This document shows, in pieces, positions 26,202 to 63,778 of a DNA stretch of 64,000 nucleotides. Source of the stretch: Zanthoxylum bungeanum (lineage: Eukaryota > Streptophyta > Magnoliopsida > Sapindales > Rutaceae); the NCBI GenBank assembly GCA_019454045.1, contig SKCR01033644.1, positions 1 to 64,000 of the forward strand, given 5' to 3'. Each line of letters begins with the position of its first letter. Within the stretch, counting starts at the first letter, position 1. The notes beneath the pieces were generated by a model. That model was not told the DNA's origin. It did not search any database and worked only from the letters and a program-made list of their open reading frames with translations. A program made the translations under genes and the position numbers.

Positions 26202-26206
26202 TAATT
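26202..26206. repeat. Target-site duplication of element B, left (ATAAT)
   Basis: ATAAT precedes the outer end of B's left LTR at 26207 and recurs at 49240-49244 after its right LTR. The two halves of B are therefore one insertion despite 14 kb of nested DNA. Confidence 0.85.
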
Positions 26207-26858
26207 GACTGGCGTAAACACACACGTATAACGCAAGCGCACGTATAGTTCAAGTAGTATAAAAATATCGATCCCACGAGGACTTAATTCCTACTTTGTT
26301 ATTAATTATTGAATCTATTTATTTACAAATATCTAATTAAATGGAGAAGAGAATGATTGTTTGATTGGTTGAATGCGGTTTTCCTTAATTAAAATAAATA
26401 AAAGAAAATACTAAGGAAAATAACAAAAGACACAAAGATCTAGGGTTGTGAATCATTCTAATATCTTTTAAAAGATGAAGTGATTATTTCATGTTTTTGT
26501 AATAAATCAGTTTACTAACCTGGAACACGAAATTATGCAAAAGCCTTTGTCGATGGTCAGACATAAATACCCAGTTTAACCCAATTGAACCATATGTCTA
26601 TGTCAACCAAATTATCTAGATTCATTAAGTTTAAGTTCTAATTATGGCTACCCCCGCCCGACAGGTATATGTCTATCCTGTAAGGAAATCTATTAAAGGG
26701 TTATCTATCCTCAAGGAAGATCGTGGACTATTAAGTCTGAGGCTGAAACCTAAAATCCCTATGTCTAGTTCATTTTAGATTTACCAGATTAATGTTATTG
26801 GTGATCAGACAACAAGAAGCAATAAACTTAAGACTTAATAAGTAAACCTTTAAATTAC
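26207..26858 (-). repeat. Element B 3' LTR, outer part
   Basis: Matches 47106-47759 of the B 5' LTR, starting TGACTGGCGTAAAC. It stops at AAATTAC where element A's TGATGAGTG begins. Confidence 0.88.
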
Positions 26859-27165
26859 TGATGAGTGATATTTATATCACTATTTCTCACTCATTTAACC
26901 TAATGTTTTGTATTGTTTCTCGAGTTTTATAAACGTTGTGATGTATTTTATTGTTATTTTGCAGATAAATAAAGTTTGGACAGCATTGGAGGCAATTTGG
27001 GGCAAAACTGGACAAAAATGCGTCAACAGGAATATTTTCGTATTTTGCGCGTCGCGACGCTGAATCACTGCGCGCCGCGACGCCCAGCATGCACCGGATT
27101 TGCTAAAGTGCGCCGGGTCAACGGGTCAGAATCTAAAAAATTGACTTTGCTAACGTGCGCCGTGC

Positions 27166-27427
27166 CACGTGTCACCATCACAAAAGACTTGCTAACTTGC
27201 GCCTGCCACGTGTCATCATCCTACGGTGCCGACAATCATCATCTATGCTATCTTGCGCCATGCCACATGTCGACATCTAAACGGACTTGCTAAAATGCGC
27301 CGCTGCCACGTGTCACGATCTAACGCTGCCGACAATCGCGCCTCAGAGTGACGTAAGCAATGACGTCATGAACAGTGCCACGTCATCGGATAAGAATCTG
27401 AGCCGGTGAATCAGCAAGTGACACGTG
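27166..27427 (+). promoter_or_regulatory. G-box/ABRE-like cluster in LTR 1
   Basis: CACGTG at 27166, 27207, 27307 and 27422, mostly as GCCACGTGTCA, plus a CACATG variant and TGACGTCA. They lie 65-330 bp upstream of the TATA box. Plant bZIP factors of the ABF and G-box classes bind this core; binding here is inferred. Confidence 0.6.
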
Positions 27428-27491
27428 TCACTGTAGCGGGCATCGCGCGCGCAACCCTTTAGCGTCGCGACGCTGGACCCCCATCCGCGCC

Positions 27492-27499
27492 TATAAATA
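27492..27499 (+). promoter_or_regulatory. TATA box of LTR 1
   Basis: TATAAATA after GCGCC and before AGAGCTCGAG. The equivalent position in LTR 2 is TATAAGTA (37834-37841), and in B it is TATAAATT (minus strand, 48488-48481). Confidence 0.7.
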
Positions 27500-27782
27500 G
27501 AGCTCGAGATTTCAGTTTTTGTTGTACCATTTCCTCTAACTAATTGGATGTAATTAGGGAGTTCTTCTCTCCCTAAGTTTCTTTTAATTTAATTTTGTAA
27601 TTTTTAATTACGTTCTGTAATAATAATAAGTTACTTTGTTTATTTTACAGTTTTTACTATTCATCCATGAGGAGGTAACTTCACTCTGCTAGGGTAAAAG
27701 GTAATTCTTTTACTATTGCTTCTTAGATTATTCTCCCATAATTATAATATATTCAAAGTTTTAAATTGGACTTAATAAGGAT

Positions 27783-27991
27783 ACCGCCAGACTGGTCGGT
27801 TGGTAATTTTATTCCGCCTATATGGCTGGTTGTTTTCATTCCGCCTGTATGGCTGGTTGTTTTTATTCCGCCTATATGGCTGTTTATTTTGATTCCGCCT
27901 TTATGGCTGGTTTATGTTAAAATGATTCCGCCTTTATGGCTGGTTGTTTTTAAACTGATTAAATCAAGATACAGCCTATATGGCTGGTTGG
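27783..27991 (+). repeat. Seven CCGCC...GGCTGG units in LTR 1
   Basis: Units of the form CCGCCTATATGGCTGG are spaced 25-45 bp apart, downstream of the TATA box and hence probably in the transcript. The same set of seven occurs in LTR 2 (38124-38333). Five occur in the B LTR, three in E and two in F. Confidence 0.85.
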
Positions 27992-28888
27992 TAATGTTTT
28001 GCAAAGTTTATATTATATTATGGGAGAAATCTAATTAGTATATAGTAGAAGCATTTCCTTTTACCTTAGCAATTTTATTTTAATTCACTTTCAGCATTTA
28101 TTTTATGCAATTTTATTATAAGTCTTTTAAGTTTTTAGCCCTAGTTATGTGTCATAGCTAAGTTAGTTATATAGGGTTGTGATGAATTTCAATTTAACCG
28201 GTTTATAAGGGTTAGATTATATTTTGGGTAATTTAAAGATTTATTTATTGAGTCTTAATCTTAATGCTCTTTAATTAACTGGCCATTGATTAAATTGATT
28301 AGGTAAACTTAAAATGAACTAGACATAGGGATTTTAAGTTTAAGACCTTAGACTCAATAGCCCACGATCTTCCTTGAGGATAGATAACCCGTTAATAGAT
28401 TTCCTTATAGGATAGGAATATACCTGTCGGGCGGGGGTAGCCATAATTGGAACTTGAACTTAATGAATCTAGGTAATTTGGTTGACATAGACATATGGTT
28501 CAATTGGATTATACTAGGTATTTGTAATTGACCATCGGAAGAGGCTTTTACATAATTTAGTGTTTCAGGTTAATAAATTGATATATTACCCAACTATAGG
28601 ATAACTACTTCATCTTTTAAATAATATTGAAATAAGTCACAACCCTGGATAGTTTTTTAAATTGAATTTTCATCATTTCACTTAAGTAAAAATTTATTTA
28701 CTTGTTTTAAATTTAGAATTATCGCCTTTTTCCAACCAAATCAAATCAATTGTTAGATACCAGTAATCAGTTAACCTCATAAAAATTAATAGATAAGGTT
28801 TTAAGTCCTCGTGGGATCGATACTTTTTATACTACTTGACGATACGTACGCTTGCGTTATACGTGTCTGTTTACGCCGGTCAAGTTTT

Positions 28889-28906
28889 TGGCGCCGTTGC
28901 CGGGGA
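28889..28906 (+). other. Primer-binding site, tRNA-Asp type
   Basis: TGGCGCCGTTGCCGGGGA, seven bases after the LTR end. It is complementary to the 3' end of plant tRNA-Asp, the primer used by Athila-type elements. The same site recurs at 39249-39266. Confidence 0.9.
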
Positions 28907-29014: not shown

Positions 29015-30224
29015 ATGAGACGAACCAGAAGCTTTGAATCCGATCCCGACGCTTGACCCAGAAATTGAAAGAACTATCAGACAGTTAAGAAGGGAAAGGC
29101 GAGAAGGCCATGAAGCCTTAGTCAACATGGAACCTTAACCTTTGGAGGTTGCACCACCAATTCCCATTCGAGACAGAACCATTCCGGTGGTAGATGGCCT
29201 CATTTCGTGTATTGTACTTCCTCATTTACCAGCAAATGCAGGTGACATCAAAACTTACATTCAGATGATTCAGCAAACGGTTCAGTTTGGGGGAAATGCA
29301 ACTGAAGATCCTAATGCCCACATCAGCAACTTCCTGGAAGTTTGCGGCACGTTCAATTACAACCGAGGAGCTGAGAAGCTATGAGGCTGAGAGTTTTCCA
29401 TATTCCCTGAAAGACAGAGCAAAAGCTTGGCTACATTCACTACCAGCAGGATCAATCACAACTTGGAACACTCTTACCACCAAATTCCTTGCAAAATACT
29501 TTCCACCAGCCAGAACTGCAAATTGAGAAATGACATCACATCCTTTGTGCAGCAAGATTCAGAATCCCTGTACGAAGCTTGGGAAAGATACAAAGATTTG
29601 CTCTGGAAATGTCCTCACCATGAGATTCCAAAATGGCTTCAAGTCCAAACTTTCTATAATGGACTTTCTGGACTGATGAGAACCACAATCGATGCTGCTG
29701 CTGGAGGAGCTTTAATGGCAAAAGGAGAAGATCAAGCCTGTGACCTAATTGAAGAAATGGCCAACAACAATTCTTTATGGCCAACAGAAAGAAGTATGAT
29801 TCAAAGAATTGCAGGAATTTATGAAGTTGGAGCTAATACAGCATTCAACACCAAGCTGGATCAGATATGCAAATTTATGGAGACTCTCAACACTCAAAGC
29901 ACCACTGGATCCACAAGTTCACCATATGGAGGAGCACCAGAACCACACCAACTTGAAGAGACGGTGAATTATGTCAACAATTTCAACAGACAGGGGAACA
30001 ATCCATATTCCAACACCTACAACCCAGGGTGGAGGAATCATCCTAATTTTTCATGGAGCAACAATTCAGGGCAAAAGAACTATCCACCACCTGGATTCCA
30101 GCAAAAAATCCAGGAGCAGACAAATGAACCAGTGATGGCAGAGATGCTAGCTCAATTAAAAAGATATGAAGCCATGATTCAGAGCCAATCAGCTTCCATC
30201 AAAGCACTAGAGAATCAAATCTGA
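29015..30224 (+). pseudogene. Element A gag, copy 1, with stops and two 1-bp deletions
   Basis: Starts MRRTRSFE. A TAA near 29137 interrupts it after NMEP. The Retrotrans_gag core follows (DRAKAWLHSLP, TTKFLAKYFPP, SLYEAWERYKDLL). Compared with copy 2, single bases are missing near 29373 and 29526, shifting the frame. A Gln/Asn-rich C-terminal region ends at a TGA near 30222. Gag forms the particle; this copy cannot make a full protein. Confidence 0.9.
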
Positions 30225-31712
30225 CAACTGGCCAATGCTCAGAGTTACAGACCACCAGGTAATCTTCCCAGCAACACAGAACCAAATCCAAGGAACCGAG
30301 GGAAGGAGCAATGTCAAGCCATTACCTTAAAGAGCGGTACTGAGATCAACAAAGATGTTGGAATCCAGATGTCTCAAGAAGAAGTTCCAAAAGAAACCGA
30401 GAAACAAATGGAAGAAAAAGAAGCAAAATAAAAAGAAGCAAAGGAAAAAGAACCAGAACAGATCACTCCACCTCCACCTTTTCCTCAGCGTCTTCAGAAA
30501 AATAAACTGGACAAACAGTTTGCTCGTTTCTTGGAGATTTTCAAAAAGCTGCACATTAACATACCATTTGCAGAAGCCTTGGAACAAATGCCTAGCTATG
30601 TCAAATTCATGAAAGACATTCTTTCACGAAAATGGAGATTGGGAGATTACGAGACAGTAGCTTTGACAGAAGAATGCAGCGCCATCATTCAGAGGAAACT
30701 TCCCCCGAAGTTGAAAGATCCTGGCAGTTTCACAGTTCCATGCACCATTGGAGAACATTACATCAGTAAGGCTTTATGTGATTTAGGTGCCAGTGTTAAT
30801 TTAATGCATTTTTCTATTTACAGGAAACTGCAAATTGGAGAAGCAATGCCTACCTCAGTATCTTTGCAACTTGCTGATCGAACACTCGCATTTCCGAGAG
30901 GAGTCGTTGAAAATGTGCTTGTCAAAGTTGACAAACTCATCCTTCTAGCAGACTTCATCATCCTTGACATGGAAGAAGACAAAGAAGTACCTATCATTCT
31001 TGGGAGACCATTTTTGGCTACAGGTAAAACTGTGATTGATGGGAAAAAATGAGAACTAACAATGAAAGTGCAGGACCAAGAAGTGACCTTTAATGTTTTC
31101 CAAGCCATGAAATTTCCAAGCGATGAAAAGGAAGAAGAAGAATGCTTCAGAATTGATGTTGTTGATAGAATTGTTCAGATTACTGAGTCAAATCCCACAG
31201 ACACACTTGAAGCTTGCATCACCAACATGACTGACAGCGAGCTAGATGCTGAAATCTTGGAATGTATCAACTACCTTGACAAACCATTCCGATTCAAAGT
31301 AACACCACCAGTTGAAAGCTTGGAACTGCCAAAGAAAGATCGAATCAAACCTTCGATTGAAGAACCACCGCAGCTGGAACTAAGGTTACTTCCAAGCCAT
31401 CTCAGGTATGCATTTCTTGGAAACTCTTCTGAATTACCTGTTATTATTTCTTCTTCACTAACATTGGAGCAGGAAGAAAAGCTACTGAGAGTGTTACGAG
31501 AACACAAAAGAGCCATTGGCTGGACTATAGCAGACATTCGAGGCATTAGTCCATCATTTTGCATGCACAAGATCCTGATGAATGATGAGTACAAACCCAC
31601 AGTGGAGCATCAACGGAGACTCAATCCAATCATGAAGGAAGTCGTGAAGAAAGAAATCATCAAATGGTTGGATGCTGACATCATTTACCCCATCTCAGAT
31701 AGCACTTGGTAA
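30225..31712 (+). pseudogene. Element A gag tail and protease region
   Basis: Continues the gag frame with a Lys/Glu-rich stretch broken by TAA near 30429. Then comes QKNKLDKQFARFLE, the conserved Athila lead-in, and the aspartic protease with DLGASVNLM (about 30781), the active-site variant usual for this lineage (D-L-G-A), and IILGRPFLATG (about 31000). A TGA follows GKK at 31050. The frame from 31062 runs to 31712, leading into RT. Confidence 0.88.
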
Positions 31713-34274
31713 GTCCTATGCAGTGTGTACCAAAGAAAGGAGGAATTACTGTTGTCACCAATGAAAAGAATGAGCTGATTCCAACAAGAACGGTAATTGG
31801 ATGGAGAGTATGTATGGATTATAGGAAGCTGAACAAAGCCACGAGAAAGGACCATTTTCCGCTACCATTCATTGACCAGATGTTATACAGACTGGCAGGA
31901 CATGAGTTCTATTGCTTTCTTGACGGATATTCAGGGTACAATCAGATTGCCATCGCACCAGAATACCAGGAGAAAACTACTTTTACATGTCCCTATGGTA
32001 CTTTTGCTTTCCGCAGGATACCATTTGGATTATGTAATGCCCCTGCCACTTTTCAGTGTTGCATGATGGCCATCTTCTCAGACATGCTGGAGCAGAGTAT
32101 GGAGGTTTTTATGGATGATTTTTCTGTGTTTGGAGATTCTTTTGACCATTGTTTGCAAAATTTGGAACAAGTATTACAAAGGTGCGAAGATACAAACCTG
32201 GTACTCAATTGGGAGAAATGCCATTTCATGGTACAGGAAGGCATTGTTCTTGGACACCGGATTTCAAAAAAGGGAATCGAGGTAGACAAAGCAAAAATCG
32301 AGACAATTGAGAAACTACCTCCACCAACATCTGTCAAAGGGATTCGGAGTTTTGTTGGACATGCATGTTTTTACAGGAGATTTATTAAAGACTTTTCCAA
32401 GATTGCCAAACCTCTTTGCAATATTCTGGAAAAGGATGTGCCTTTCAACTTCACCAAAGAATGCCAGGAAGCTTTCGAGATCTTAAAACATAAGCTGATT
32501 TCTGCCCCCATCATTGTAGCACCAGATTGGACCATTCCATTCGAGGTAATGTGTGATGCTAGTGATTTTGCTGTAGGTGCAGTTTTGGGACAACGCAAAG
32601 CAAAGATTTTCCACACCATTTACTACTCCAGCAGAACTCTGAATGAAGCTCAACTCAACTACACAACCACTAAAAAGGAGTTGCTCACAGTTGTGTACGC
32701 TTTTGACAAATTTCGCTCCTATCTGCTGGGTCCCAAAGTGTTGGTCTACACAGATCATTCAACAATCAAATATCTGATCACAAAGAAAAATGCCAAACCC
32801 AGATTGATCCGTTGGATACTTCTTTTGCAAGAATTCGACGTGGAGATTCGAGACAGGAAAGGAACAGAAAACCAGATGGCAGATCACTTATCGAGGCTCG
32901 AGAATGGAGAAACAGCTGACAGAGAACTGACAATCAAAGAAACATTTCCAGATGAACAACTGTTTTCCATGAAACAACAGGAAGTCCCTTGGTATGCTGA
33001 CTATGTCATTTATATTGTATCAGGAAAATGGCCGTTAGAATGGACAACTAAGCAACGGAAGAAGTTCTTCAAAGAAGTCAAGCACTATGTCTGGGATGAA
33101 CCGTACCTGTTTAAACGCTGTGCTGATCAATTATTAAGACGGTGTGTTCCACAGGAGGAGGTCAACAGTGTTTTGCAACACTGTCATTCATCACCATACG
33201 GCGGACACTTCAGTGGAAACAAAACTGCAGCTAAAGTCCTTCAATCAGGTTTGTTCTGGCCCACACTTTTTAAAGATGCTTATCTTTTTGCTTTTCAATG
33301 TGACAGGTGCCAGAGAACGGGGAATATTTCGAAGAGAAATGAAGGACCGTTGCAAAACATTCTGGAAGTGGAAATATTCGATGTATGGGGTATTGATTTC
33401 ATGGGACCCTTTGTTCCATCATTTGGAAACCTGTACATCCTGGTTGCTGTAGATTACGTCTCCAAATGGGTTAAGGCAATTGCACTCCCATCCAATGATT
33501 CTAAAGTGGTGATCAAATTCCTGAAAAAGAACATTTTCACTCGGTTTGGAACACCTCGAGCAATCATCAGCGATGGTGGTTCTCATTTCTGCTACAAATA
33601 CTTCGATGCACTCCTATCCAAATACAGAGTTACTCACAAAGTTGCCACTGCTTACCATCCATAGTCAAATGGACAGGTTGAGGTTTCAAACAGGGAGATC
33701 AAGAGAATCCTAGAAAGGACCGTTGGATCAACAAGGAGGGACTGGTCTACCAAACTAGATGATGCATTATGGGCCTACCGAACAGCTTACAAGACACCCA
33801 TTGGTATGTCTCCATATCGATTGGTGTTTGGGAAAGCATGCCATCTGCTAGTTGAGCTTGAACACAAGGCGTACTGGGCACTGAAGAAGTTGAATCTTGA
33901 CTCACAAGCTGCAGGAGAGAAAAGACTTCACCAACTCAATGAATTGGAGGAATTTCGCCTACAGGCTTATGACAATGCCAAATTATACAAGGAAAAGACC
34001 AAAAAATGCATACCAAAAAATAGTGCACAGACAGTTGGAACCAAGGCAGCAGGTGTTGTTGTACAACTCGAGGTTAAAACTTTTCCCTGGAAAGTTAAAA
34101 TCTAGGTGGTCCGGACCATTTGTGATCACTCAGGTTTTACCATATGGAGCTGTTGAGTTACTGGATCCCAATACCAACAATACATTCAAAGTTAACAGTC
34201 AGCGTGTCAAACACTACTGGGGAGAATCATTTGAGCGACAAAAAGAAAGTGTCACACTTTCAGATCCAGCATAA
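31706..34274 (+). pseudogene. Element A RT, RNase H and integrase
   Basis: A 652-codon open stretch (31706-33664) follows a one-base loss near 31710. RT shows [24 protein letters not shown] residues and FMDDF in place of YMDDF (about residue 135). RNase H shows [15 protein letters not shown] and TDHSTIKYL. Integrase has the HHCC finger (H...CDRCQRTG) and a core starting GIDFMGPF with [13 protein letters not shown] (from CAG) stops it at about 33662. The integrase tail continues in shifted frames to SVTLSDPA at 34274. It matches Athila-type pol. The enzymes copy and insert the element; this copy is dead. Confidence 0.92.
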
Positions 34275-34413
34275 ACGTTCAAGAAGTCACGTCTAGCTGA
34301 CGACTTTAAACTTAGCGCTCGCAGGGAGGCAACCCATGCAATTTTTGTATATATTGTGATTTGGTGTGATTTAATTTTGTGTGTTTAGTTTTTGCAGATT
34401 AAGTCATTTCAAG
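34275..34413 (+). other. Spacer between pol and ORF X
   Basis: Contains the CGCTCGCAGGGAGGCAACCCA block that follows pol in both A and B (B: 44301-44280, minus). A pyrimidine-rich run ending TTTTTGCAG (about 34389-34397) could be a splice acceptor upstream of ORF X. Confidence 0.45.
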
Positions 34414-34960
34414 ATGGAAGAAGTTCTCGCAAATCTTCACAAGCAATTTCCTTCTCTCCCTCAAAAATCTCTGATGAAAGTCTACAAAGCTCGCTTGGAA
34501 CGGATGAGGTTACTGACGATCTATGGTGTTCCAATGACATTCGTTGGGTAATTGAAGCACGAGTCCGATTGGCAGGTGAGTCTTCTGACTCTTTTATTTC
34601 ACACTTGCCTGGTTTTGGAAGAAGCACCTATGCAAAGAAACGAAGAGCTAAGCAAATGGGTGTTTGTTACAAATGTGCCGTTGGAATTGCAACACTCGTT
34701 GTCGTTATTTAGGAATGATGTCTGTTAATCGCGAAGACAAAATTAAATTCATTAGGGATGGCTTGAGTAAAGAGTCTTTAGATGATATATCTTCGACTCT
34801 TGAGACGCATCCCGGTGGATATGTTCACATAGACTTTCGCAGATTACATACACAATTTCAAAAAGAAAGACAACAGTTAAGTCTTGGGAATCTGACTCAA
34901 AAAGACCCTGTTTGCCAATTTATAAGAAAATTGGATGGGAAGCTTGTCGCTGACGCATAG
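34414..34960 (+). pseudogene. ORF X of element A, unknown protein, two frameshifts
   Basis: Begins MEEVLANLHK and reads 45 codons to a stop at 34549, then continues in a second frame (RWVIEARVRLAGESSDSF, then YAKKRRAKQMGVCYKCA) and a third (NREDKIKFIRDGLS to KLDGKLVADA, stop at 34958-34960). About 180 codons in total. Visible features are a basic KKRRAK segment, a CYKC motif with further cysteines in the next frame, and a charged C-terminal half. I do not recognise the family. It stands where some Athila elements carry an envelope-like frame, but no signal peptide or membrane segment is visible. The copy in B (minus, 44203-43674) retains the same start and end, arguing that it was once a real protein. 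Confidence 0.65.
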
Positions 34961-35229: not shown

Positions 35230-35883
35230 ATGGAAGCCACTTCAAGAAAACGAGTTGAAAACATTTGTGTGTTTTGCGGTAGTAGTGTTGGTACTAAACC
35301 ACAATACAAAGAAGCAGCATAGGAGTTGGGTCGAGTATTAGCTGTAAGGAATATGCACTTAATATATGGTGGAGGAAATCTTGGATTAATAGGGATCGTT
35401 TCAAAGGCCGTACAAGAAGGAGGCAGTCATGTTTTGGGAATCGTCCTAAAATCCTTGGCAGAAGCAAATCTTATTGGATCATCAAACGGAGAGGAACTAA
35501 TCGTGCCAGGTATGTCTGAACGACTGGTAGAAATGATTAACCGTGCTGATGCTTTTATTGCTTTGCCAGGTGGCTTGGGTACATTGGAGGAAATTTTTAT
35601 TGTGTTATCTTGGGCGAACCTAAACATACACCAGAAACCGCTTGGACTACTCAATATTGATGGATTTTATGATTTTCTTTGTGTGTTTCTTGATGATGCT
35701 CGGAGAAATGGGTTCGTGTCAAAACCTATGAAAGAACTCCTCTTTACTGCCAGAACTGCTCCGGATCTGATAGACCAACTCATAGCTTATGAACCACAAG
35801 TTGACCCTATCCTATCAAAGATAAATTGGTCTGAGGACGATCGTGGTAAGAGGCGTCGAATTAATCTGGATCTTAACCTTTAA
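35230..35883 (+). pseudogene. LOG-like: Captured LOG gene in element A (cytokinin riboside 5'-monophosphate phosphoribohydrolase), one nonsense codon
   Basis: 217 codons from MEATSRKRVE to a TAA at 35881. LOG enzymes release free cytokinin base from its riboside monophosphate, in the cytosol and nucleus. Key parts are visible: VCVFCGS-type start (NICVFCGSSVG), YGGGNLGLIG at residues 46-55, the conserved Arg in MSER at residue 98, and the signature PGGLGTLEE at 113-121. The C-terminus ends RGKRRRINLDLNL. Length fits the family. The frame has no introns, whereas plant LOG genes are normally multi-exonic, pointing to capture through RNA. The only break is TAG at 35320 (codon 31; CAG in element B). 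It lies between ORF X and the 3' non-coding region of a retrotransposon. Databases often label this family lysine decarboxylase-like; the PGGxGTxxE signature supports LOG. Confidence 0.92.
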
Positions 35884-36730: not shown

Positions 36731-37228
36731 CATTGCTACAAAAAGGTGTGAAATCTGATAGAACTTTAGGACAAAAATATTACTCTTTTATCAACTGCAC
36801 TTATGACTGTTGTGGGCAAAAATGAGTTGATTAATATTTTGTTGGCTGTGTATATGGAGAATGGTAAAAATAATGGGAGAATTTACTTATTCAGTAATTT
36901 AGAAAGAAACAAAACAACTAGTAACTTGGAGTAGAATTTTCACCTGATTAGTCACTAACTATCTTTATTCTCTTTTCGCTTGTCTTTTCGCTTTTGTGTG
37001 CATTAGTTTTACTACCTTTTTACTTTTGTAAAATGTTTGTGGGTATCATTGCTGTAAACCCTCACGAGACTACACTCGTCCACTAGGGACACCTAGAGGT
37101 TTAAAGGCTTGTTGCATATGCTAAATGCAACCGTGATCCCTACGAAAGTGGCTTAGTTAAATTTTATTTTCATGTTATTTTATTTTTTGTTTTGCTCAAG
37201 GACTAGCAAAATGTTAGGTTTGGGGGTG

Positions 37229-39242
37229 TGATGAGTGATATTTATATCACTATTTCTCACTCATTTAACCTAATATTTTGTATTGTTTCTTGAGTTTTAT
37301 GAACGTTTTGATGTGTTTTATTGTTATTTTGCAGATAAATAAAGTTTGGACAACATTGGAGGCAATTTGGGGCAAAACCGGACAAAAATACGTCAACAGG
37401 AATATTTTCGTCTTTTGCGCGTCGCGACGCTGGACCAGATTTGCTAAAGTGCGTCGGGTCAACGGGTCAGAATCTGAAAAATTGACTTTGCTAACGTGCG
37501 CCGTGCCACGTGTCACCATCACAGAAGACTTGCTAACTTGCGCCTGCCACGTGTCATCATCCTACGGTGCCGACAATCATCATCTATGCTATCTTGCGCC
37601 ATGCCACGTGTCGACATCTCAACGGACTTGCTAAAATGCGCCGCTGCCATGTGTCACGATCTAACGCTGCCGACAATCGCGCCTCAGAGTGACGTAAGCA
37701 ATGACGTCATGAACAGTGCCACGTCATCGGATAAGAATCTGAGCCGGTGAATCAGCAAGTGACACGTGTCACTGTAGCGGGCGTCGCAACGCGCAACCCT
37801 TTAGTGTCGCGACGCTGGACCCCCATCCGCTCCTATAAGTAGAGCTCGAGATTTCAGTTTTTGTTGTACCATTTCCTCTCACTAATTCGATATAATTAGG
37901 GAGTTATTCTCTCTCTAAGTTTCTTTTAATTTAGTTTTGTAATTTTTTAATTACGTTCTGTAATAATAATAAGTTACTTTGTTTATTTTACAGTTTTTAC
38001 TATTCATCCATGAGGAGGTAACTTCCCTCTGCTAGGGTAAAAGGTAATTCTTTTACTATTGCTTCTTAGATTATTCTCCCATAATTATAATATATTCAAA
38101 GTTTTAAATTGGACTTAATAAGGATCCCGCCAGACTGGTCGGTTGGTAATTTTATTCCGCCTATATGGCTGGTTGTTTTCATTCCGCCTTTATGGCTGGT
38201 TGTTTTTATTCCGCCTATATGGCTGGTTATTTTGATTCCGCCTTTATGGCTGGTTTATGTTAAAATGATTCCGCCTTTATGGCTGGTTGTTTTTAAACTG
38301 ATTAAATCAAGATACCGCCTATATGGCTGGTTGGTAATGTTTTGCAAAGTTTATATTATATTATGGGAGAAATCTAATTAGTATATAGTAGAAGTATTTC
38401 CTTTTACCTTAGCAATTTTATTTTAATTCACTTTCAGCATTTATTTTACCGTATTTACTTTATGCAATTTTATTATAAGTCTTTTAAGTTTTTAGCCCTA
38501 GTTATGTGTCATAGCTAAGTTAGTTATCTAGGGTTGTGATGAATTTCAATTTAACCGGTTTATAAGGGTTAGATTATATTTTGGGTAATTTAAAGATTTA
38601 TTTATTGAGTCTTAATCTTAATGCTCTTTAATTAACTGGCCATTAATTAAATTGATTAGGTAAACTTAAAATGAACTAGACATAGGGATTTTAAGTTTAA
38701 GACCTTAGACTCAATAGCCCACGATCTTCCTTGAGGATAGATAACCCTTTAATAGATTTCCTTACATGATAGGAATATACCTGTCGGGCGGGGGTAGCCA
38801 TAATTGGAACTTGAACTTAATGAATCTAGGTAATTTGGTTGACATAGACATATGGTTCAATTGGATTATACTAGGTATTTGTAATTGACCATCGGAAGAG
38901 GCTTTTATATAATTTAGTGTTTCAGGTTAATAAATTGATATATTACCCAACTATAGGATAACTACTTCATCTTTTAAATAATATTGAAATAAGTCACAAC
39001 CCTGGATAGTTTTTATAAATTGAATTTTCATCATTTCACTTAAGTAAAAATTTATTTACTTGTTTTAAATTTAGAATCATCGCCTTTTTCCAACCGAATC
39101 AAATAAATTTGTTAGATACCAGTAATCAGTTAACCTCATAAAAATTAATAGATAAGGTTTTAAGTCCTCGTGGGATCGATACTTTTTATACTACTTGAAC
39201 GATACGTACGCTTGCGTTATACGTGTGTGTTTACGCCGGTCA
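37229..39242 (+). repeat. Element A LTR 2
   Basis: 2014 bp, nearly identical to LTR 1 with scattered substitutions and small indels (for example an added segment at about 38447 and a missing CpG-rich segment near 37430). Four CACGTG motifs lie at 37507, 37548, 37605 and 37763, TATAAGTA at 37834 and seven CCGCC-GGCTGG units at 38124-38333. It acts as the 3' LTR of the first copy and the 5' LTR of the second. Confidence 0.92.
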
Positions 39243-39375
39243 AGTTTTTGGCGCCGTTGCCGGGGACTTAGTTATCTTTACTATTAGTTTAAAGGTTAGA
39301 TACCTTTACTTGTATCTAATTTATCTTTTTACTTATTATTTTTGTTTTATTGTGTTTCAGGTTCTCAGACACTTC

Positions 39376-40584
39376 ATGAGACGAACCAGAAGCTTTGAAA
39401 TCCGACTGCTTGACCCAGAAATTGAAAGAACTATCAGACAGTTAAGAAGGGAAAGGCGAGAAGGCCAAGAAGCCTTAGTCAACATGGAACCTTAACCTTT
39501 GGAGGTTGCACCACCAATTCCCATTCGAGACAGAACCATTCCGGTGGTAGATGGCCTCATTTCGTGTATTGTACTTCCTCATTTACCAGCAAATGCAGGT
39601 GACATCAAAACTTACATTCAGATGATTCAGCAAACGGTTCAGTTTGGGGGAAATGCAACTGAAGATCCTATTGCCCACATCAGCAACTTCCTGGAAGTTT
39701 ACGGCACGTTCAATTACAACCGAGGAGCTGAAGAAGCTATGAGGCTGAGAGTTTTCCCATATTCCCTGAAAGACAGAGCAAAAGCTTGGCTACATTCACT
39801 ACCAGCAGGATCAATCACAACTTGGAACACTCTTACCACCAAATTCCTTGCAAAATACTTTCCACCAGCCAGAACTGCAAATTTGAGAAATGACATCACA
39901 TCCTTTGTGCAGCAAGATTCAGAATCCCTGTACGAAGCTTGGGAAAGATACAAAGATTTGCTCTGGAAATGTCCTCACCATGAGATTCCAAAATGGCTTC
40001 AAGTCCAAACTTTCTATAATGGACTTTCTGGACTGATGAGGACCACAATCGATGCTGCTGCTGGAGGAGCTTTAATGGCAAAAGGAGAAGATCAAGCCTG
40101 TGACCTAATTGAAGAAATGGCCAACAACAATTCCTTGTGGCCAACAGAAAGAAGTATGATTCAAAGAATTGCAGGAATTTATGAAGTTGGAGCTAATACA
40201 GTATTCAACACCAAGCTGGATCAGATATGCAAATTTATGGAGACTCTCAACACTCAAAGCACCACTGGATCCACAAGTTCACCATATAGAGGAGCACCAG
40301 AACCACACCAACTTGAAGAGACGGTGAATTATGTCAAAAATTTCAACAGACAGGGGAACAATCCATATTCCAACACCTACAACCCAGGGTGGAGGAATCA
40401 TCCTAATTTTTCATGGAGCAACAATTCAGGGCAAAAGAACTATCCACCACCTGGATTCCAGCAAAAAAGCCAGGAGCAGACAAATGAACCAGTGATGGCA
40501 GAGATGCTAGCTCAATTAAAAAGATATGAAGCCATGATTCAGAGCCAATCAGCTTCCATCAAAGCACTAGAGAATCAAATCTGA
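39376..40584 (+). pseudogene. Element A gag, copy 2, one internal stop
   Basis: Starts MRRTRSFEI. A TAA at 39493 splits 39 leading codons from an uninterrupted 361-codon gag core (39499-40584) ending at a TGA. It keeps the frame in the two places where copy 1 is shifted. It shares with copy 1 the TAA after NMEP, the TGA after LENQI and the TAA in the Lys/Glu tail. Element B has sense codons at the first two. Confidence 0.9.
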
Positions 40585-41105
40585 CAACTGGCCAATGCTC
40601 AGAGTTACAGACCACCAGGTAATCTTCCCAGCAACACAGAACCAAATCCAAGGAACCGAGGGAAGGAGCAATGTCAAGCCATTACCTTAAAGAGCGGTAC
40701 TGAGATCAACAAAGATGTTGGAATCCTGATGTCTCAAGAAGAAGTTCCAAAAGAAACCGAGAAACAGATGGAAGAAAAAGAAGCAAAATAAAAAGAAGCA
40801 AAGGAAAAAGAACCAGAACAGATCACTCCACCTCCACCTTTTCCTCAGCGTCTTCAGAAAAATAAACTGGACAAATAGTTTGCTCGTTTCTTGGAGATTT
40901 TCAAAAAGCTTCACATTAACATACCATTTGCAGAAGCCTTGGAACAAATGCCTAGCTATGTCAAATTCATGAAAGACATTCTTTCACGAAAACGGAGATT
41001 GGGAGATTACGAGACAGTAGCTTTGACAGAAGAATGCAGCGCCTTTATTCAGAGGAAACTTCCCCTGAAGTTGAAAGATCATGGCAGTTTCACAGTTCCA
41101 TGCAC
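40585..41105 (+). pseudogene. Element A gag tail and protease lead-in, copy 2, cut by deletion
   Basis: Continues collinearly with 30225-30745 as far as FTVPCTM. There the sequence switches at about 41106 to the minus-strand LTR of element B. A TAG near 40876 replaces a Gln codon of copy 1. The protease active site is missing. Confidence 0.88.
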
Positions 41106-41419
41106 CATGGCACGGCACACGTTAGCAAAGTCAAAATTTTCTCAGATTCTGACACGTGGACCCGATGCACGTTAGCTTTGTTTGGCGCACGTTAGGTGTC
41201 GCGATGCCAAGGGCTTGCACGTCGCGACGCGTGAAATGACCATTTTGCCCTTTTCATTCAATTTTCACTGTTTTGCTCCAAATTACCTCCAGAATGTCCT
41301 GAAACTTTATTTATATACAAAATAACACAAAACACATCAAAATATTCACAAAAATCAAGAAATTATACAAAATATTATGTTAAATGAGTGGGAAATAGTG
41401 ATAGATTTACCACTCATCA
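41106..41419 (-). repeat. Element B 3' LTR, inner part
   Basis: Matches 48986-49239 of the B 5' LTR and ends ACTCATCA. A CACGTG occurs at 41153. Together with 26207-26858 it forms the 3' LTR, less a missing middle of about 1.2 kb. Confidence 0.85.
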
Positions 41420-42750
41420 CACTCCTAAACCTAACATTTTGCTAGTCCTCGAGCAAAACACAGAATAAAATAACATAAACATCCTTAAAATAAAATTTAA
41501 CTAAGCCACTTTCGTAGGGATCACTGTTGCATTTAGCGTATGCAACAAGCCTTTAAACCCCTAAGTGTCCCTAGTGGACGAGTTGTAGTCTCGTGAGGGT
41601 TTACAACAATGATACCCACAAACATTTTACGAAAGTAAAAATGTAGTAAAACTAATGCACACAAAAGCAAAAAGACAAGCGAAAATAGAATAAAGAAGTT
41701 AGTGACTAATCAGGTGAAACTTCAACTCCAAGTTACTAGTTGTTTTATTTCTTTCTAAATTACCGAATAAGTAAATTCTCCGATTATATTTACCATTCTC
41801 CATATACACAGCCAACAAAATATTAAACAACTCATTTTTGCCCACAACAGTCATAAATGCGGTTGATAAGAGAGTAATATTTTTGTCCTAAAGTTTTATC
41901 AGAATTCACATCTTTTTGTAGCAATGGAATAATTTTTCTCATTTTTCTGATTTTTTCTTTGAATTTTTTTCTTTTATTTATATATAATATCTTCCGTCTA
42001 TGTAGCGAGCTTTGAGTCGGTGGCTCCAAAACCAGTTGGCTTTAGGACACCAGGTGTTAAGACACCCCTACGGACTTAATTACTCAGACTTCAGATATAT
42101 ATATTTTACAGCATCTTTGATCCATGTAGCGAGATTTGGGCCAGTGACTCCCAAACCAGTTGGTTTTAGGGCAATATGTGTTAAAACACCCTTACAGACT
42201 TAATAACTCGGATCTCAGACGTTTTTCTTTTTACTCCATTGCTTTTTGAGATTCTTCCTCCAATTAAACTAGAGCACCAAATATTACAAACTTTTCAATT
42301 ATAGCTCATGTCCGTATGTTACTATGCATGTTGATAATACCTGTAAACTGAGCATATGAAGATCCATTTTAGTCAGTATTATGGAGAATTCACAAATTAA
42401 ATAATTTAAAATGAAATAAACAAAAATTAACTTGTTTCGAAATAGGTTTGAGATACGCCTCAGGAGTGGAAACTTCTTACTCAATTATCTTTTACCAATT
42501 TCACCTTTTTAGTCAAAATAAAACACAAAAATATAAAATATTTTTGTAATTTTTGAAAAATATTCAATTTTTTTTGTAATTTTCGAAAAATTTTAGACTA
42601 AAAATAAAAATAACACACAAAATAAAAACAAGGTACCGATCAACTAATTCTCTCCCCCAAACCTAAATGAGACATTGTCCCCAATGTCTTAAACAGTAGA
42701 AGAAAAGCTTGAAAGATAGTACCTGGTTAGCTGAAATTCTACACGAAAAT
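41420..42750 (-). other. 3' non-coding region and polypurine tract of element B
   Basis: Minus-strand counterpart of 35884-37228: polypurine tract at 41420-41433, hairpin units at 41998-42210, an internal purine tract (TTTGGGGGAGAG, about 42650-42662) and the GACATTG/CAATGTC hairpin (42671-42688). The internal purine tract is better preserved here than in A. Confidence 0.75.
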
Positions 42751-43404
42751 TTAAAGGTTAAGATCCAGATTAATCCGACGCCTCTTACCACGATCGTCCT
42801 TGGACCAATTTATCTTTGAAATGATATGGTCAATTTGTGGTTCATAGGCTAATATTTGGTCAATTAGATCCGGAGCAGTTTTGGCAGCAAAGAGGAGTTC
42901 TTTTAAAGGTTTTGACACAAACCCATTTCTCCGAGCATCATCAAGAAACACACAAAGAAAATCATAAAATCCATCAACGTTAAACAACCCAATTGGTTTC
43001 TGGTGTATGTTCAGGTTCGCCCAAGATAGCACTATAAAAATTTCCTCCAATGTGCCCAAGCCACCTAGCAAAGCAATAAAAACATCAGCACGATTAATCA
43101 TTTCTACTAATCATTCAGACATACCTGGCAAGATCAGTTCATCTCCATTTGATGGTCCAATAATATTTGCCTCCGCCAAGGGTTTTGGAATGATTCCCAA
43201 AATGTGACTGCCTCCTTCCTGTACGGCTTTTGAAATGATCCCCATAAGTCCAAGATTGTCTCCGCCATATACTAAGTGCATATTCCTTGCAGCTAAGACT
43301 CGACCCAATTCCTGTGCTGCTTCTACGTATTGTGGCTTAACACCAACACTAGTTCCGTAAAACACACAGATGTTTTCAACTCGTCTTCTTGAAGTTGCTT
43401 CCAT
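42751..43404 (-). pseudogene. LOG-like: Captured LOG gene in element B, one nonsense codon
   Basis: 217 codons, the same length as the A copy, from MEATSRRRVE to the RRRINLDLNL tail. It is intronless. TGA at 43113-43111 replaces codon 98, which is the conserved Arg in the A copy (CGA to TGA). Two key changes are also seen: YGGG has become YGGD, and the signature is LLGGLGTLEE, with its Pro lost. Codon 31, a stop in A, is a sense Gln here. The two copies differ at many positions but align without indels. Neighbours match element A: ORF X upstream and the hairpin-rich non-coding region downstream. As read, this copy could not make an active enzyme. Confidence 0.92.
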
Positions 43405-43439
43405 GTTTTACTCTGGATGTCTTCAAAAGTGAAATGATG

Positions 43440-43463
43440 AGTTGAATTTATAACACCTGAAAA
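43440..43463 (-). promoter_or_regulatory. TATA-like box before LOG in element B
   Basis: Minus-strand TATAAATT lies about 50 bp before the LOG start. It is preceded by CTTTTCAGG, which also resembles a splice acceptor. It is at the position of the element A box. Confidence 0.4.
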
Positions 43464-43673
43464 GGGTGAGTAAAATAATAGCACTAGTACCTGCCAAATG
43501 ACAATTATTAGTTAATAGTAAAATAAATCGTAATAGTCAAAAAGGTCTGGATCCTATCGGAGAAAATAAAAGAAAACAACAAAACAAATTACAATTATTA
43601 GGAAAAGACAAAGAGATATAATATTTACAAGAAAAGTAGCGGCTTGATTGACGTCTATGCGTCAGGGACAAGC

Positions 43674-44203
43674 TTCCCATCCAATTTTCTTATAAATTGG
43701 CAAATAGGGTCGTTTTGAGTCAGATTCCCGAGACTTAACTATTGTCTTTCTTTTTGAAATTGTGTATGTAATTTGCGAATGGCTATATGAACATATCCAC
43801 TGGGATGCGTCTCAAGAGTCGAAGATATATTATCTACAGACTCCTTACTCAAGCCATCCCTAATGAATTTAATTTTATCTTCGCGATTATCAGACACCAT
43901 TCCTAAAGAACGATAACGAGTATTGCAATTCCAGCGTGCATATTTGTAACAAACACCCATTTGCTTAGCTCTACGTTTCTTTGTATAGGTGCTTCTTCCA
44001 AAACCAGACAGATGTGAAATAAAAGAGTCAGAAGACTCACCTGCCAATCGGACCCGTGCTTCAATTACCCAACGAATATCTTTAGGAACATCATGGATCG
44101 TTAGTAATCTCATCCGTTTTAAGCGAGCTTTGTAGACTTTCATCAGAGAGTTTTGAGGGAGAGAAGGAAATTACTTGCAAAGATTTGCGAGAGCTTCTTC
44201 CAT
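43674..44203 (-). pseudogene. ORF X of element B, unknown protein, two nonsense codons
   Basis: Starts MEEALANLCK, with TAA at codon 11 (CAA in A). It is then open for 134 codons from MKVYKARLKRM to KERQ, where TAG (CAG in A) occurs near 43740. The remaining codons run in frame to the same end as A. It carries the basic KKRRAK segment and a CYKY...CNTRY stretch, which suggests that one Cys of the A motif changed. Unlike A it has no frameshifts. The function is unknown. Confidence 0.65.
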
Positions 44204-44341
44204 CCTAAAATGTCTTAACCTGCAAAAACTAAACATACAAAATTAAATCACACCAAATCATAATATATACACATATTGCATGGGTTGCCTCCCTGCGAGC
44301 GCTAAGTTTAACGTCGACAGCTAGACGTGACTTCTCGAACA
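44204..44341 (-). other. Spacer between the integrase tail and ORF X in B
   Basis: Non-coding, the counterpart of 34275-34413 in A, with the conserved AGCGCT...GGGAGGCAACCCA block. Confidence 0.45.
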
Positions 44342-44935
44342 TTAGGCTGGATCTGAAAGTGTGACACTTTTTTTTTGTCGCTCAAACGATTCTCCCCAGT
44401 AGTGCTTGACACACTTGTTTTTAACCTTAAAAGTTTTGTTGGAGTCAGGATCATGTATCTCAACGGCTCTATCTGGTAAAACTTTGGAGATCACAAATGG
44501 GCCTGACCACCGTGATTTTGGCTTCCATGGGAAGAATTTCACCATTGATTTGTTTAAAAGTACCTTCTGCCCTGGTTCCAGTTGTATGCGCACTAACTTC
44601 TCATCCTGTCTCTTCTTGGCCTTTTCTTTGTACAATTTGGCATCCTCAAAAGGCTGATTGTGAAATTCCTCCAATTCGTTGAGCTGTTGGAACTTTTTCT
44701 CTTCTGTTGCTTGTAGTGCAAGAATTGGCTTTTTCAGTGCAAAAGACGCTTTATCTTCAGGCTCCATAGGCAATTGACATATTTTAAGTTTGTCAATAGA
44801 ACTTTGCATTGCATTGGAGTTCTGAATGGTACTGTGTATCATATCAAGTCTGAAATATTCCTCATTCTTTTCATCATCTGGGAAATTCATGGCCTTGAAA
44901 ACATTGAATGTTACCTCTTGGTCATGTACCCTCAT
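44342..44935 (-). pseudogene. Protease tail fused in frame to the integrase C-terminus in B
   Basis: A 197-codon open frame. Its first 30 residues match the segment after protease in A (VHDQEVTFNVFKAM). Its last 120 residues match the integrase C-terminus ([35 protein letters not shown], ending SDPA). RT, RNase H and the integrase catalytic core, about 2.7 kb in A, are gone. The joining segment of about 45 residues (SIDKLKICQLPMEPEDK...) is not obviously related to A. Keeping the frame open across the junction hints that the short form was once translated. Confidence 0.85.
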
Positions 44936-46966
44936 GGTTAATTCTCCTTTTTGTACATCAATAATGGTTCAACCTGTAGCCAAGAATAGTCTCCCGATGA
45001 TGATTGGCATGTCTGCATATTCCTCCATATCAAGGATAATAGAATCTGCTGGGAAAATAAATTTGTCAACCTTGACCAGCACATCCTCAACTACGCCTTT
45101 TGGAAATACGAGCGTTTTTCTATCAACAAGTTGTAGAGAGACTGAAGTTGGCATTGTTTCTCCAATCTGCAATTTCCTGAAAATAGAAAAATGTATCAAG
45201 TTAACACTAGCACCTAAATCACATAAAGCCTTACCAAAGTTATGTTCTCATATGATGCAATGAATGGTGAAACTGTCAGGATCTTTCAACTTTGGTGGAA
45301 GCTTCCTCTGAATGATGGCGCTGCATTTTTCTGTTAATGCTACTGTCTCGTAATCTTCCAATCTCCGTTTTCGTGAAAGAATGTCTTTCATGAATTTTAC
45401 ATAGCTGGGCATTTGTTCCAAGGCTTCTGCAAATGGAATGTTGATGTGAAGCTTTTTGAACACCTCCAAGAATCGAGCAAACTGCTTGTCCAGTTTTTTT
45501 TTTCTGAAGACGCTGAGGAAAAGGTGGAGGTGGAGTGATCTGTTCTTTTTCATTTGCTTCTTTTTCCTCCATCTGTTGCTTTGTTTCTTTTGGAACTTCC
45601 TCAGTAGTTGTTTTGGCTCCAACATCTTTATTGATTTCAGTACCGCTTTTTAATATGATGGCATGACATTGCTCATTCCCTCAGTTATTTGGATTGGGTT
45701 CTGTGTTGCTGGGAAGATTATCTGACGGTCTGTAACTTTGAGCATTGACCAGTTGTCCGATTTGATTCTCCAGTGCTTTGATGGAAGCAAATTGGCTCTG
45801 AAAGATAACATCATATGCTGCCTGTTGCTTTTTGAACATCTCTGCAATCCATTCTTTCATTTCTGGTTCTTTTTCATGTTCCTGGCCTTTGTTCTGTTGT
45901 TGAAATCCTGGTGGTGGATAGTTCTGCTGTTGGAATCCAGGTGGTGGATTGTTCTTTTGTCCCGAATTGTTGCTCCATGAAAAATTGGGATGATTCCTCC
46001 ACCATGGTTGTAGGTGTTGGAATATGTATTGTTCCCATGTGTGTTGAAATTGTTGACAAAATTCACCGTCTCTTCAAGTCGGTTTGGTTCTGGTGCTCCT
46101 CCATATGGTGAACTTGTGGATCTAGTGCTGAGAGTCTCCATGAATTTGCATATCTGATCCAGCTTGGCGTTGGCTGCTGTATTGACTCCACTTTCATAAA
46201 TTCCTGCAATTATTTGGATCATGCTCATTTCTGTTGGCCACAAGGAATTGTTATTGGCTATTTCTTTGATTAGGTCTCAGGCTTGATCTTCTCATTTTGC
46301 CATTAAAGCTCCTTCAGCAGCAGCATCAATTGTGGTTCTCATCAGTCCAGAAAGTCCATTATAGAAGATTTGGACTTGAAGCCATTTTGGAATCTCATGG
46401 TGAGGACATTTCCGGAGCAAATCTTTGTACATTTCCTAAGCTTCGTAGAGAGTTTCTGAGTCTTGTTACACAAAGGATGTGATGTCATTCCTCAGATTTC
46501 CAGTTCTGGCTGGTGGAAAGTACTTTGCAAGAAATTTGGTGGCTAAAGTGTTCCAAGTTGTGATGGAACTTGTTGGTAGTGAATGGAGTATGGGAAAATA
46601 CGCAGTCTCATTGCTTCTTCAGCTTCTCGGTTGTAATTGAAAGTGCCGCAAACTTCCAGGAAGTTGCTGATGTGGGCATTAGGATCTTCAGTTGCATTCC
46701 CCCAAACTAAACTGACTGCTGAATCATCTGAATGCATGTTTTGATGTCACCTGTATTTGATGGTAAGGGAGGAAGTACAATACATGAAATGAGTCTGTCA
46801 ACCACCGGAATGGTTCTGTCTCGAATGGGAATTGGTTGTGCAACATCCAAAGGTTCAGGTTCCATGTTGACTAAAGCTTCTTGGCCTTCTCGCCTTTCCC
46901 TTCTCAACTTTCTGATGGTTCTTTCAATTTATGGGTCAAGCGGTCGGAGTTCAAAGCTTCTGGTTT
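44936..46966 (-). pseudogene. Element B gag and protease, degenerate
   Basis: Minus-strand gag with lost start (ATA for ATG near 46970), an early TAA near 46930 and later frameshifts (46440-46560). The gag C-terminal Asn/Pro-rich region at 46243-45857 is followed by the ERQ-rich tail and the protease region (45625-44969). That region carries the IHFSIFRKL and IIIGRLFLATG segments and a broken DLGAS zone near 45205-45230. It is collinear with A 29015-31060. B retains sense codons at two stops shared by the A copies. Confidence 0.88.
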
Positions 46967-47081
46967 GTCTATGAAGTTTCTGAGAACCTGAAACACAAGA
47001 AAACAAAAACAATAAGTAAAAAGAAAATTAGATACAAGTAAAGGTATCTAACATTAAAACTAATAGTGAAAGATAAATAAG

Positions 47082-47099
47082 TCCCCGGCAACGGCACCA
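47082..47099 (-). other. Primer-binding site of element B
   Basis: Minus-strand TGGTGCCGTTGCCGGGGA, one base different from the element A site, just inside the 5' LTR. Confidence 0.88.
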
Positions 47100-47105
47100 A
47101 AAACT

Positions 47106-63773: not shown

Positions 63774-63778
63774 TCATG

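What the first reader, a model, noticed from the sequence alone, without database searches (positions are those of the whole stretch)
35230..35883. A retrotransposon has captured a cytokinin-activating LOG gene
Inside an Athila-type element, between the integrase/ORF X region and the 3' LTR, lies a 217-codon frame with the LOG signature PGGLGTLEE, a YGGG nucleotide-binding loop and a conserved Arg. It is intronless. Capture of a host hormone-activation gene by an LTR retrotransposon would be a notable case of transduction, with a possible effect on host hormone levels when the element is expressed.
Basis: partly seen in the sequence, partly recalled or inferred. Interest (0 to 1): 0.92.

Follow-up and report, generated by a model that had tools for sequence, protein, structure and literature searches.

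The report
Jumping gene with remodelled LOG enzyme
A plant retrotransposon present in very many copies carries its own version of the plant LOG gene, which in plants activates the growth hormone cytokinin; selection has acted on the protein it encodes, but residues predicted to line its substrate pocket have changed, so it likely acts on some other molecule, and beside it lies a second gene that resembles a plant-virus nucleic-acid-binding protein.

Summary
The frame is real: a full-length, intronless LOG homologue at 35230-35883, but this copy has a TAG at codon 31. It is not a chance insert. A second broken copy lies in the window (42754-43404, minus). LOG lies 1.2-1.4 kb before an LTR in 26 of the 28 loci long enough to show it, and copies picked by integrase or by the neighbouring ORF, not by LOG, carry it in 10 of 10 and 25 of 28. 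The LOG frame shows purifying selection (omega about 0.29; other sense frames 1.3 and 1.7).

(1) The element-type LOG clade, distinct from the sampled plant LOG genes (99/97 support), mostly keeps the catalytic Arg and Glu, but 96 of 101 relatives lack both Lys100 and Glu125 of the proposed prenyl/adenine pocket, and 84 of 101 end in a strict LxLxL tail. Cytokinin activation is therefore not the likely function. (2) Just upstream lies another selected ORF, related to betaflexivirus nucleic-acid-binding proteins.

LOG/YgdH in Gypsy elements of Citrus and poplar is already in print; matK places this genome near Zanthoxylum (same family as Citrus). So: a new variant of a known kind. Activity, expression and the tail's role are untested.

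The parts
26859..28882 (+). 5' LTR of element A (ends placed by eye at TG...CA)
   Evidence: 95.5% identical to the 3' LTR by BLAST, K2P 0.022
28889..28906 (+). primer binding site-like sequence TGGCGCCGTTGCCGGGGA (complementarity to tRNA-Asp is recalled, not tested)
29427..30224 (+). gag ORF fragment
   Evidence: PF03732 E 4.2e-7
31706..33664 (+). pol: RT, RNase H, integrase zinc-binding and core
   Evidence: PF00078, PF17917, PF17919, PF17921, PF00665
34392..34960 (+). NABP-like accessory ORF (broken in this copy; outer limits approximate)
   Evidence: PF01623 Carla_C4 E 3.1e-6 on the ORF 34392-34712; an intact natural copy is 182 aa
35230..35883 (+). LOG-family accessory gene; TAG at codon 31 in this copy
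37216..37228 (+). G-rich stretch directly before the 3' LTR (likely polypurine tract)
   Evidence: sequence
37229..39242 (+). 3' LTR of element A, also 5' LTR of the truncated tandem element B (B ends at 41108)
42754..43404 (-). second LOG copy, in element C (minus strand, 49239 to 41108, lacking most of pol); stop at the catalytic Arg codon
43739..44143 (-). NABP-like ORF of element C
   Evidence: PF01623 E 8.7e-5

Best explanation
An Athila-like LTR retrotransposon carries a LOG-family gene between pol and the 3' LTR as an accessory gene whose protein shows purifying selection, most likely captured as a processed plant LOG transcript and since likely reshaped to cleave a nucleotide other than a cytokinin precursor. 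Shown: position, presence in copies sampled without regard to LOG, selection, one well-supported clade with relatives from other plants, catalytic Arg/Glu mostly kept, Lys100/Glu125 (and in most also His97) lost, a conserved C-terminal KRRR-x-x-LDLNL-like tail. Inferred: capture through mRNA (from the lack of introns against host LOGs split over several exons); a LOG dimer fold with phosphoribohydrolase chemistry retained; a changed base pocket, hence a changed substrate; nuclear targeting by the basic tail and recruitment of a TOPLESS-type corepressor, or another partner, by the LxLxL end (the meaning of both motifs is recalled). How it would help the element: the enzyme would lower a nucleotide signal or modified nucleotide in or near the nucleus, together with the NABP-like protein encoded just upstream, and so favour expression or copying of the element.
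For: Presence: NABP-chosen 25 of 28 (two partial), integrase-chosen 10 of 10 (10 fetched of 39 other scored copies); 28 of 28 chosen by LOG itself, which says nothing on presence. LTR start 1194-1413 bp after the LOG stop in 26 of 36 loci looked at; 8 of the 10 misses (L029-L036) end too early, L002 and L025 show none. Selection: omega 0.29 in frame in 34 copies not chosen by LOG score (one of them, L066, came from a LOG-exon query), 2dlnL 275; 1.28 and 1.72 in the other sense frames; 0.98/1.05/0.70 in downstream non-coding DNA; shared changes N/S 1.27 against 3.16 for singletons, p 7.5e-4 in all 60 copies. Fold: AlphaFold2 pLDDT 83.6, pTM 0.82; best PDB match AtLOG3 2a33_B, TM 0.94 by target and 0.75 by query, 50% identity. 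Pocket: 15 of 15 host/Arabidopsis rows keep M96/H97/R99/K100/E121/E122/E125/W129; of 101 relatives 96 lack both K100 and E125, 91 keep both R99 and E122; own copies S97 57/60, L100 57/60, I125 46 and T125 13 of 60. Tail: strict LxLxL in the last 10 residues of 84 of 101 relatives; LDLNL exact in 52 of 60 own copies; no LxLxL in the last exon of the 27 of 29 host LOG loci read to the stop. Order of change: rows with a canonical pocket and basic tail without LxLxL (P0099, P0039, P0044, P0050), then P0045 with a canonical pocket plus LxLxL, branch first within the clade. Six of 28 LOG-chosen loci have no NABP-like ORF and no window-type gag or pol in the stretch fetched, yet carry LOG, intact in 3 of the 6.
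Against: No assay, no expression data, no substrate. Only one bacterial LOG study was used to assign pocket residues, and it infers the prenyl site by superposition. In the 33 copies chosen without regard to LOG the shared-versus-singleton test alone is weak (1.19 against 1.93, p 0.06); one antisense frame gave omega 0.44 (2dlnL 148) and one non-coding frame 0.70 (2dlnL 29). Most copies sampled without regard to LOG are broken (intact 4 of 23 NABP-chosen, 1 of 8 integrase-chosen). The element clade lies beside, not inside, the sampled host LOGs, so the donor is not identified. That the relatives from other plants sit in retrotransposons was not checked here.
Confidence: 0.6

Rival explanations
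1. One reading: the element-borne protein is a working cytokinin-activating LOG and raises host cytokinin when the element is expressed.
For: LOG fold, PGGLGTLEE, catalytic Arg and Glu and Trp129 mostly kept; purifying selection. PMC11593424 (abstract and passages) reports that LOG sequence group and activity do not always agree, so pocket reading from sequence is uncertain.
Against: His97, Lys100 and Glu125, identical in CgLOG, AtLOG3, OsLOG and CpLOG (PMC4979012 passages) and in 15 of 15 host/Arabidopsis rows here, are replaced in nearly all own element copies; Lys100 and Glu125 in 96 of 101 relatives.
Confidence: 0.2
2. Selected but non-catalytic: the LOG fold serves as a nucleotide sensor or scaffold whose basic-LxLxL tail recruits a host partner.
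For: Pocket changes plus conserved tail; 10 of 101 relatives lack R99 or E122.
Against: 91 of 101 relatives keep both catalytic residues, and 55 and 57 of 60 own copies keep Arg98 and Glu121 of the element numbering, unexpected for a pure scaffold.
Confidence: 0.15
3. Passive hitchhiker: a host LOG retrocopy caught once and multiplied without function.
For: Many copies are broken, including both in the window.
Against: omega 0.29 against 1.3 and 1.7 in the other sense frames; conserved clade with named relatives in several plant genera; LOG kept in copies without window-type pol.
Confidence: 0.04
4. A host LOG gene beside which the element landed, or an annotation accident.
For: None found.
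Against: Nearly the same distance to the LTR in 26 loci; host LOGs have introns, a different pocket and a different C-terminus.
Confidence: 0.01

Closest known systems
Ty3/gypsy elements with a LOG/YgdH domain in Citrus sinensis, C. clementina and, with a looser filter, Populus trichocarpa (PMC9289625, section 12 read; it cites Steinbauerova 2011, which was not held)
   Same: LOG-family domain inside a Gypsy-type LTR element; Citrus is in the same family (Rutaceae, recalled) as the matK-based nearest genus here, Zanthoxylum
   Different: The section read gives only domain presence; selection, changed pocket, tail, carriers without pol and the adjacent NABP-like ORF are not described there
Canonical plant LOG (AtLOG3, At2g37210, PDB 2a33)
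   Same: Fold (TM 0.94 by target), PGG-GT--E motif, catalytic Arg/Glu, about 50% identity
   Different: Element LOG has H97S/K100L/E125I-type changes and a basic-LxLxL tail, and is intronless unlike the host LOG genes of this genome
AlkB-carrying Gypsy elements of Phalaenopsis (PMC9289625, abstract and passages)
   Same: LTR element with an extra enzyme-coding ORF kept over many copies
   Different: Different enzyme; there activity was shown in vitro
Carlavirus/betaflexivirus nucleic-acid-binding proteins (PF01623, PF05515)
   Same: Upstream ORF scores above both curated cut-offs (29.6 vs 20.9 and 26.9 vs 23 bits)
   Different: Encoded by an LTR element, 182 aa with its own long C-terminal part; match limited to about 40-80 residues; no viral structure matched

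Membership tests
Type-I LOG (cytokinin riboside 5'-monophosphate phosphoribohydrolase) | LOG/Lysine_decarbox fold and family profile | tested here: met
   PF03641, TIGR00730 over cut-off; AF2 model of copy L007 to 2a33
Type-I LOG (cytokinin riboside 5'-monophosphate phosphoribohydrolase) | PGGxGTxxE motif with catalytic Arg99 and Glu122 | tested here: met
   R99 55/60, E122 57/60 in own copies
Type-I LOG (cytokinin riboside 5'-monophosphate phosphoribohydrolase) | Prenyl/adenine pocket M96, H97, K100, E125, W129 | tested here: not met
   H97, K100, E125 replaced; M96 and W129 kept
Type-I LOG (cytokinin riboside 5'-monophosphate phosphoribohydrolase) | NCBIfam equivalog CtkRMPhLog cut-off | tested here: inconclusive
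   91.3 bits against a cut-off of 300, but only the 185-aa open part of the window copy was scored and no plant LOG was scored as a control
Type-I LOG (cytokinin riboside 5'-monophosphate phosphoribohydrolase) | Conversion of iPRMP to iP | not testable with these tools
   needs an enzyme assay
Athila clade of Ty3/gypsy | Gypsy domain order RT-RH-INT, no chromodomain or second RNase H hit | tested here: met
   on the ORF 31706-33661 and the neighbouring ORFs listed there only
Athila clade of Ty3/gypsy | tRNA-Asp type PBS | tested here: inconclusive
   TGGCGCCGTTGCCGGGGA found; link to tRNA-Asp recalled; PMC6317226 passages name tRNA-Asp as one of several primers of non-chromoviruses
Athila clade of Ty3/gypsy | RT/RH/INT phylogeny with reference elements | not tested
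   no reference set at hand
Athila clade of Ty3/gypsy | Athila ORF-1 domain PF03078 (16% of Athila elements, PMC6317226 passage) | tested here: not met
   no hit in the eight ORFs scanned; not required for membership
Betaflexivirus NABP | Carla_C4 / Viral_NABP profile match over curated cut-off | tested here: met
   150 of 150 scored genome hits over cut-off for PF01623
Betaflexivirus NABP | Fold match to a viral NABP | tested here: inconclusive
   model poor (pLDDT 65); no hit at E<=0.001 in BFVD

The most novel reading that the evidence does not exclude
This plant retrotransposon lineage carries a two-gene accessory cassette comparable to retroviral accessory genes: a LOG that has become a nuclear enzyme for a non-cytokinin nucleotide signal and recruits TOPLESS-type corepressors through its LxLxL end, and a betaflexivirus-type nucleic-acid-binding protein, acting together against host silencing or defence and shared, with the changed pocket, across eudicot orders.
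Probability: 0.2. Interest if true: 0.92.

Novelty: new variant of a known kind. Interest (0 to 1): 0.68.

Why it matters
Extra genes in plant LTR elements are easily taken for passengers. Here one shows purifying selection, a shared change of its predicted substrate pocket and a shared new tail in relatives from several plant genera (named ones include Populus, Paulownia, Reevesia and Diplodiscus), so the question of what an accessory enzyme does for a plant retrotransposon becomes directly testable with one purified protein. The neighbouring NABP-like ORF raises a second testable question: gene exchange between RNA viruses and LTR retrotransposons in plants.

Tried and rejected
Rejected: host gene beside the element; passive passenger; nested position within the sampled host LOGs. 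Led nowhere: IMG/VR scans for LOG and NABP, no relative confirmed; BFVD fold search with the weak NABP model; literature on NABP-like ORFs in LTR elements (listings of an open-licence library, none on this). The donor LOG group could not be named. No lineage tree of RT was made. Target-site duplications were not tested, because element A shares its 3' LTR with B. The genome's copy number is not counted: 47,331 and 21,755 are unscored first-look candidates.

Rows dropped or weak: 19 of the 120 listed LOG relatives lie outside 195-262 aa and were left out of the tree and the pocket counts; 5 own element copies were used there (L001 with X at its stop); 13 of 29 host loci were used (others near-duplicates or partial), and the stitched row of host_L047 holds a spurious first piece. 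4 of 64 full-length copies at or above 99% identity to another were dropped before the selection tests, and L068 and L083 (600 bases or less of the frame) before that; of the two LOG copies in L012 only one was used. Host and Arabidopsis rows end at the AtLOG3-aligned part, so absence of the tail rests (27 of 29 loci; L045 and L046 not read to the stop); the full C-termini of the Arabidopsis proteins were not seen.

Full report
Observation. The frame 35230-35883 is a complete LOG homologue broken by TAG at codon 31. It lies in element A: LTRs of 2.0 kb at 26859-28882 and 37229-39242 (K2P 0.022), PBS-like site at 28889, gag and pol domains. At the rate quoted for Zanthoxylum bungeanum (3.92e-9 per site per year, passage in PMC8417289) the LTR difference would mean roughly 2.9 million years, but the 3' LTR is shared with a truncated tandem element B, so this is only indicative. 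A second LOG lies at 42754-43404 (minus) in a pol-deleted element C, with TGA at the catalytic Arg codon.

Which genome. A broken nuclear matK copy (L097) is closest among named records to Zanthoxylum calcicola (86% over 62% of the query); the next named ones are mostly Rutaceae, then other Sapindales (family placement recalled). The assembly is 3.96 Gb in 51,709 contigs. I infer a Zanthoxylum-like Rutaceae; the species is not shown. Citrus, where LOG/YgdH-bearing Gypsy elements were already listed (PMC9289625, section 12 read), belongs to the same family.

Family-wide. PF03641 in the whole genome: 47,331 first-look candidates, 150 of 150 scored over cut-off. Presence of LOG: in loci chosen by the NABP-like ORF, 8 of 8 (L029-L036, the best hits) and 17 of 20 (L067-L086, 20 of its other 142 places; two of the 17 partial; none found in L070, L077, L085, whose fetched pieces are about 1.5 kb); in loci chosen by integrase DNA, 10 of 10 (10 fetched of 39 other scored copies, all 97% or more identical to the window's integrase stretch). 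The 28 loci chosen by PF03641 itself all hold it, as they must. The LTR begins 1194-1413 bp after the LOG stop in 26 of 36 loci looked at, window 1346; of the 10 misses, L029-L036 end before the LTR is due, L002 and L025 show none. Six of the 28 PF03641-chosen loci (L002, L003, L007, L020, L022, L027) show no NABP-like ORF upstream, and neither pol nor gag of the window is found by tblastn in the stretch fetched; LOG is intact in L003, L007 and L022. They look like a pol-less subfamily.

Selection. Sixty non-redundant copies: shared changes N 75 (2 of them to or from a stop) and S 59, singletons N 101 (9 stops) and S 32 (p 7.5e-4; neutral expectation N/S 2.67). In the 33 copies not chosen by LOG: 1.19 against 1.93, p 0.06. 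Codon model (GY+F3X4): omega 0.29 in frame for 34 copies not chosen by the PF03641 score (the 33 plus L066, fetched by a LOG-exon query), 2dlnL 275; 1.28 and 1.72 in the other sense frames; antisense 1.38, 0.44 and 2.44; downstream non-coding DNA of 30 copies 0.98, 1.05, 0.70. The NABP-like ORF: omega 0.395 in frame, 1.16 and 1.02 in the other two (42 copies). The fast tree search gives inconsistent likelihood differences in some controls (negative values), so the estimates matter more than the exact test values.

The protein. AlphaFold2 gives a confident LOG fold for the copy in L007, except at both ends. Against CgLOG numbering (PMC4979012, passages: Arg99 and Glu122 proposed catalytic; Met96, Lys100, Glu121 adenine; Met96, His97, Lys100, Glu125, Trp129 prenyl site), all 15 host/Arabidopsis and both bacterial rows are canonical. 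The five own element rows and 96 of 101 relatives lack K100 (L, M or I) and E125 (H, Q, T, I and others), while 91 of 101 keep both catalytic residues. H97 is S in 60 and H in 20 of the 101. In 60 own copies: S at 97 in 57, L at 100 in 57, I or T at 125 in 59. The five relatives that keep the pocket are the earliest branches of the clade; four of them (P0039, P0044, P0050, P0099; their grouping has weak support, 87/37) have a basic tail without LxLxL, and P0045 has LxLxL. This suggests an order: basic tail, LxLxL, then pocket change; whether the early branches are element or host genes was not tested.

Tree. 123 rows, LG+C20+F+G4 PMSF: element-type clade 106 rows 99/97; host clade (13 own genes, AtLOG3, AtLOG8) 15 rows 99/92; bacterial pair as the far group, which the program flags as long branches; root at the midpoint. 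Host LOG genes here are split by introns, all seven AtLOG3 pieces being found in 11 of 29 loci, and none of the 27 read to the stop ends in LxLxL. The sample lacks several plant LOG groups, so 'sister to host LOGs' is provisional.

The neighbour. The ORF directly upstream (182 aa in a natural intact copy) exceeds the curated cut-offs of PF01623 Carla_C4 (E 7e-7) and PF05515 Viral_NABP (E 5.5e-6). PF01623 in the genome: 21,755 first-look candidates, 150 of 150 scored over cut-off, although the control genomes barely ring (1 of 14, none over cut-off). 368 of 429 candidates in the protein collection are relatives; among the 120 listed, named ones come from Xanthoceras, Populus, Acer, Orobanche and Rhamnella, and many carry both Pfam domains. 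The majority line of 28 aligned relatives has the core GKS-YAKKRRAK-L-VC-KCARWTCNTRCRSLGMVS-NREDKIQFI. Direction of transfer and function are open; the role of carlavirus NABPs in silencing suppression is recalled, not tested.

How it most likely works. Shown: an accessory gene, carried at a nearly fixed place, selected as protein, with the catalytic core mostly kept and predicted pocket residues changed. Inferred: captured as a spliced transcript; still a nucleotide monophosphate hydrolase; substrate no longer a cytokinin nucleotide; tail for nuclear import and corepressor binding; benefit to element expression or copying. Cytokinin activation remains possible (0.2), a non-catalytic sensor 0.15.

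Novelty. LOG in Gypsy elements is known as a domain listing. The selection, pocket change, tail and NABP-like neighbour are, as far as the listings of searches of an open-licence library show, not described there. Vicient and Casacuberta 2020 (PMC7264820) has no occurrence of 'LOG', 'lysine decarboxylase', 'Citrus' or 'YgdH'.

Noticed in passing
window 34392-34960 and 43739-44143: NABP-like ORF related to betaflexivirus nucleic-acid-binding proteins, amplified with the element and under selection.
   Followed up: partly
window 37229-41108 / 41108-49239: Tandem element B shares an LTR with A and breaks at 41108, where element C begins in the opposite direction.
   Followed up: partly
L002, L003, L007, L020, L022, L027: Copies without window-type pol in the stretch fetched that keep LOG, with another acidic ORF upstream (no tblastn match to the window's gag).
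   Followed up: partly
L012: Two LOG copies about 3.5 kb apart in the same orientation.
   Followed up: no
window 1826-2876: Relative of the stretch between LOG and the 3' LTR, 70-78% identical, with no LOG found beside it in the window.
   Followed up: no
window 25131-25715: Tandem repeat, period 143 bp, about 4 copies.
   Followed up: no
window 26205-26858: LTR-like stretch in the opposite direction directly before element A, with 92-96% identical matches at 47105-47759, 59263-59565 and 63768-64000.
   Followed up: no
P0011, P0018, P0035: Xanthoceras predicted proteins with two LOG-like stretches in one chain.
   Followed up: no
L097 and one search list: Many nuclear matK fragments, many with internal stops.
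   Followed up: no
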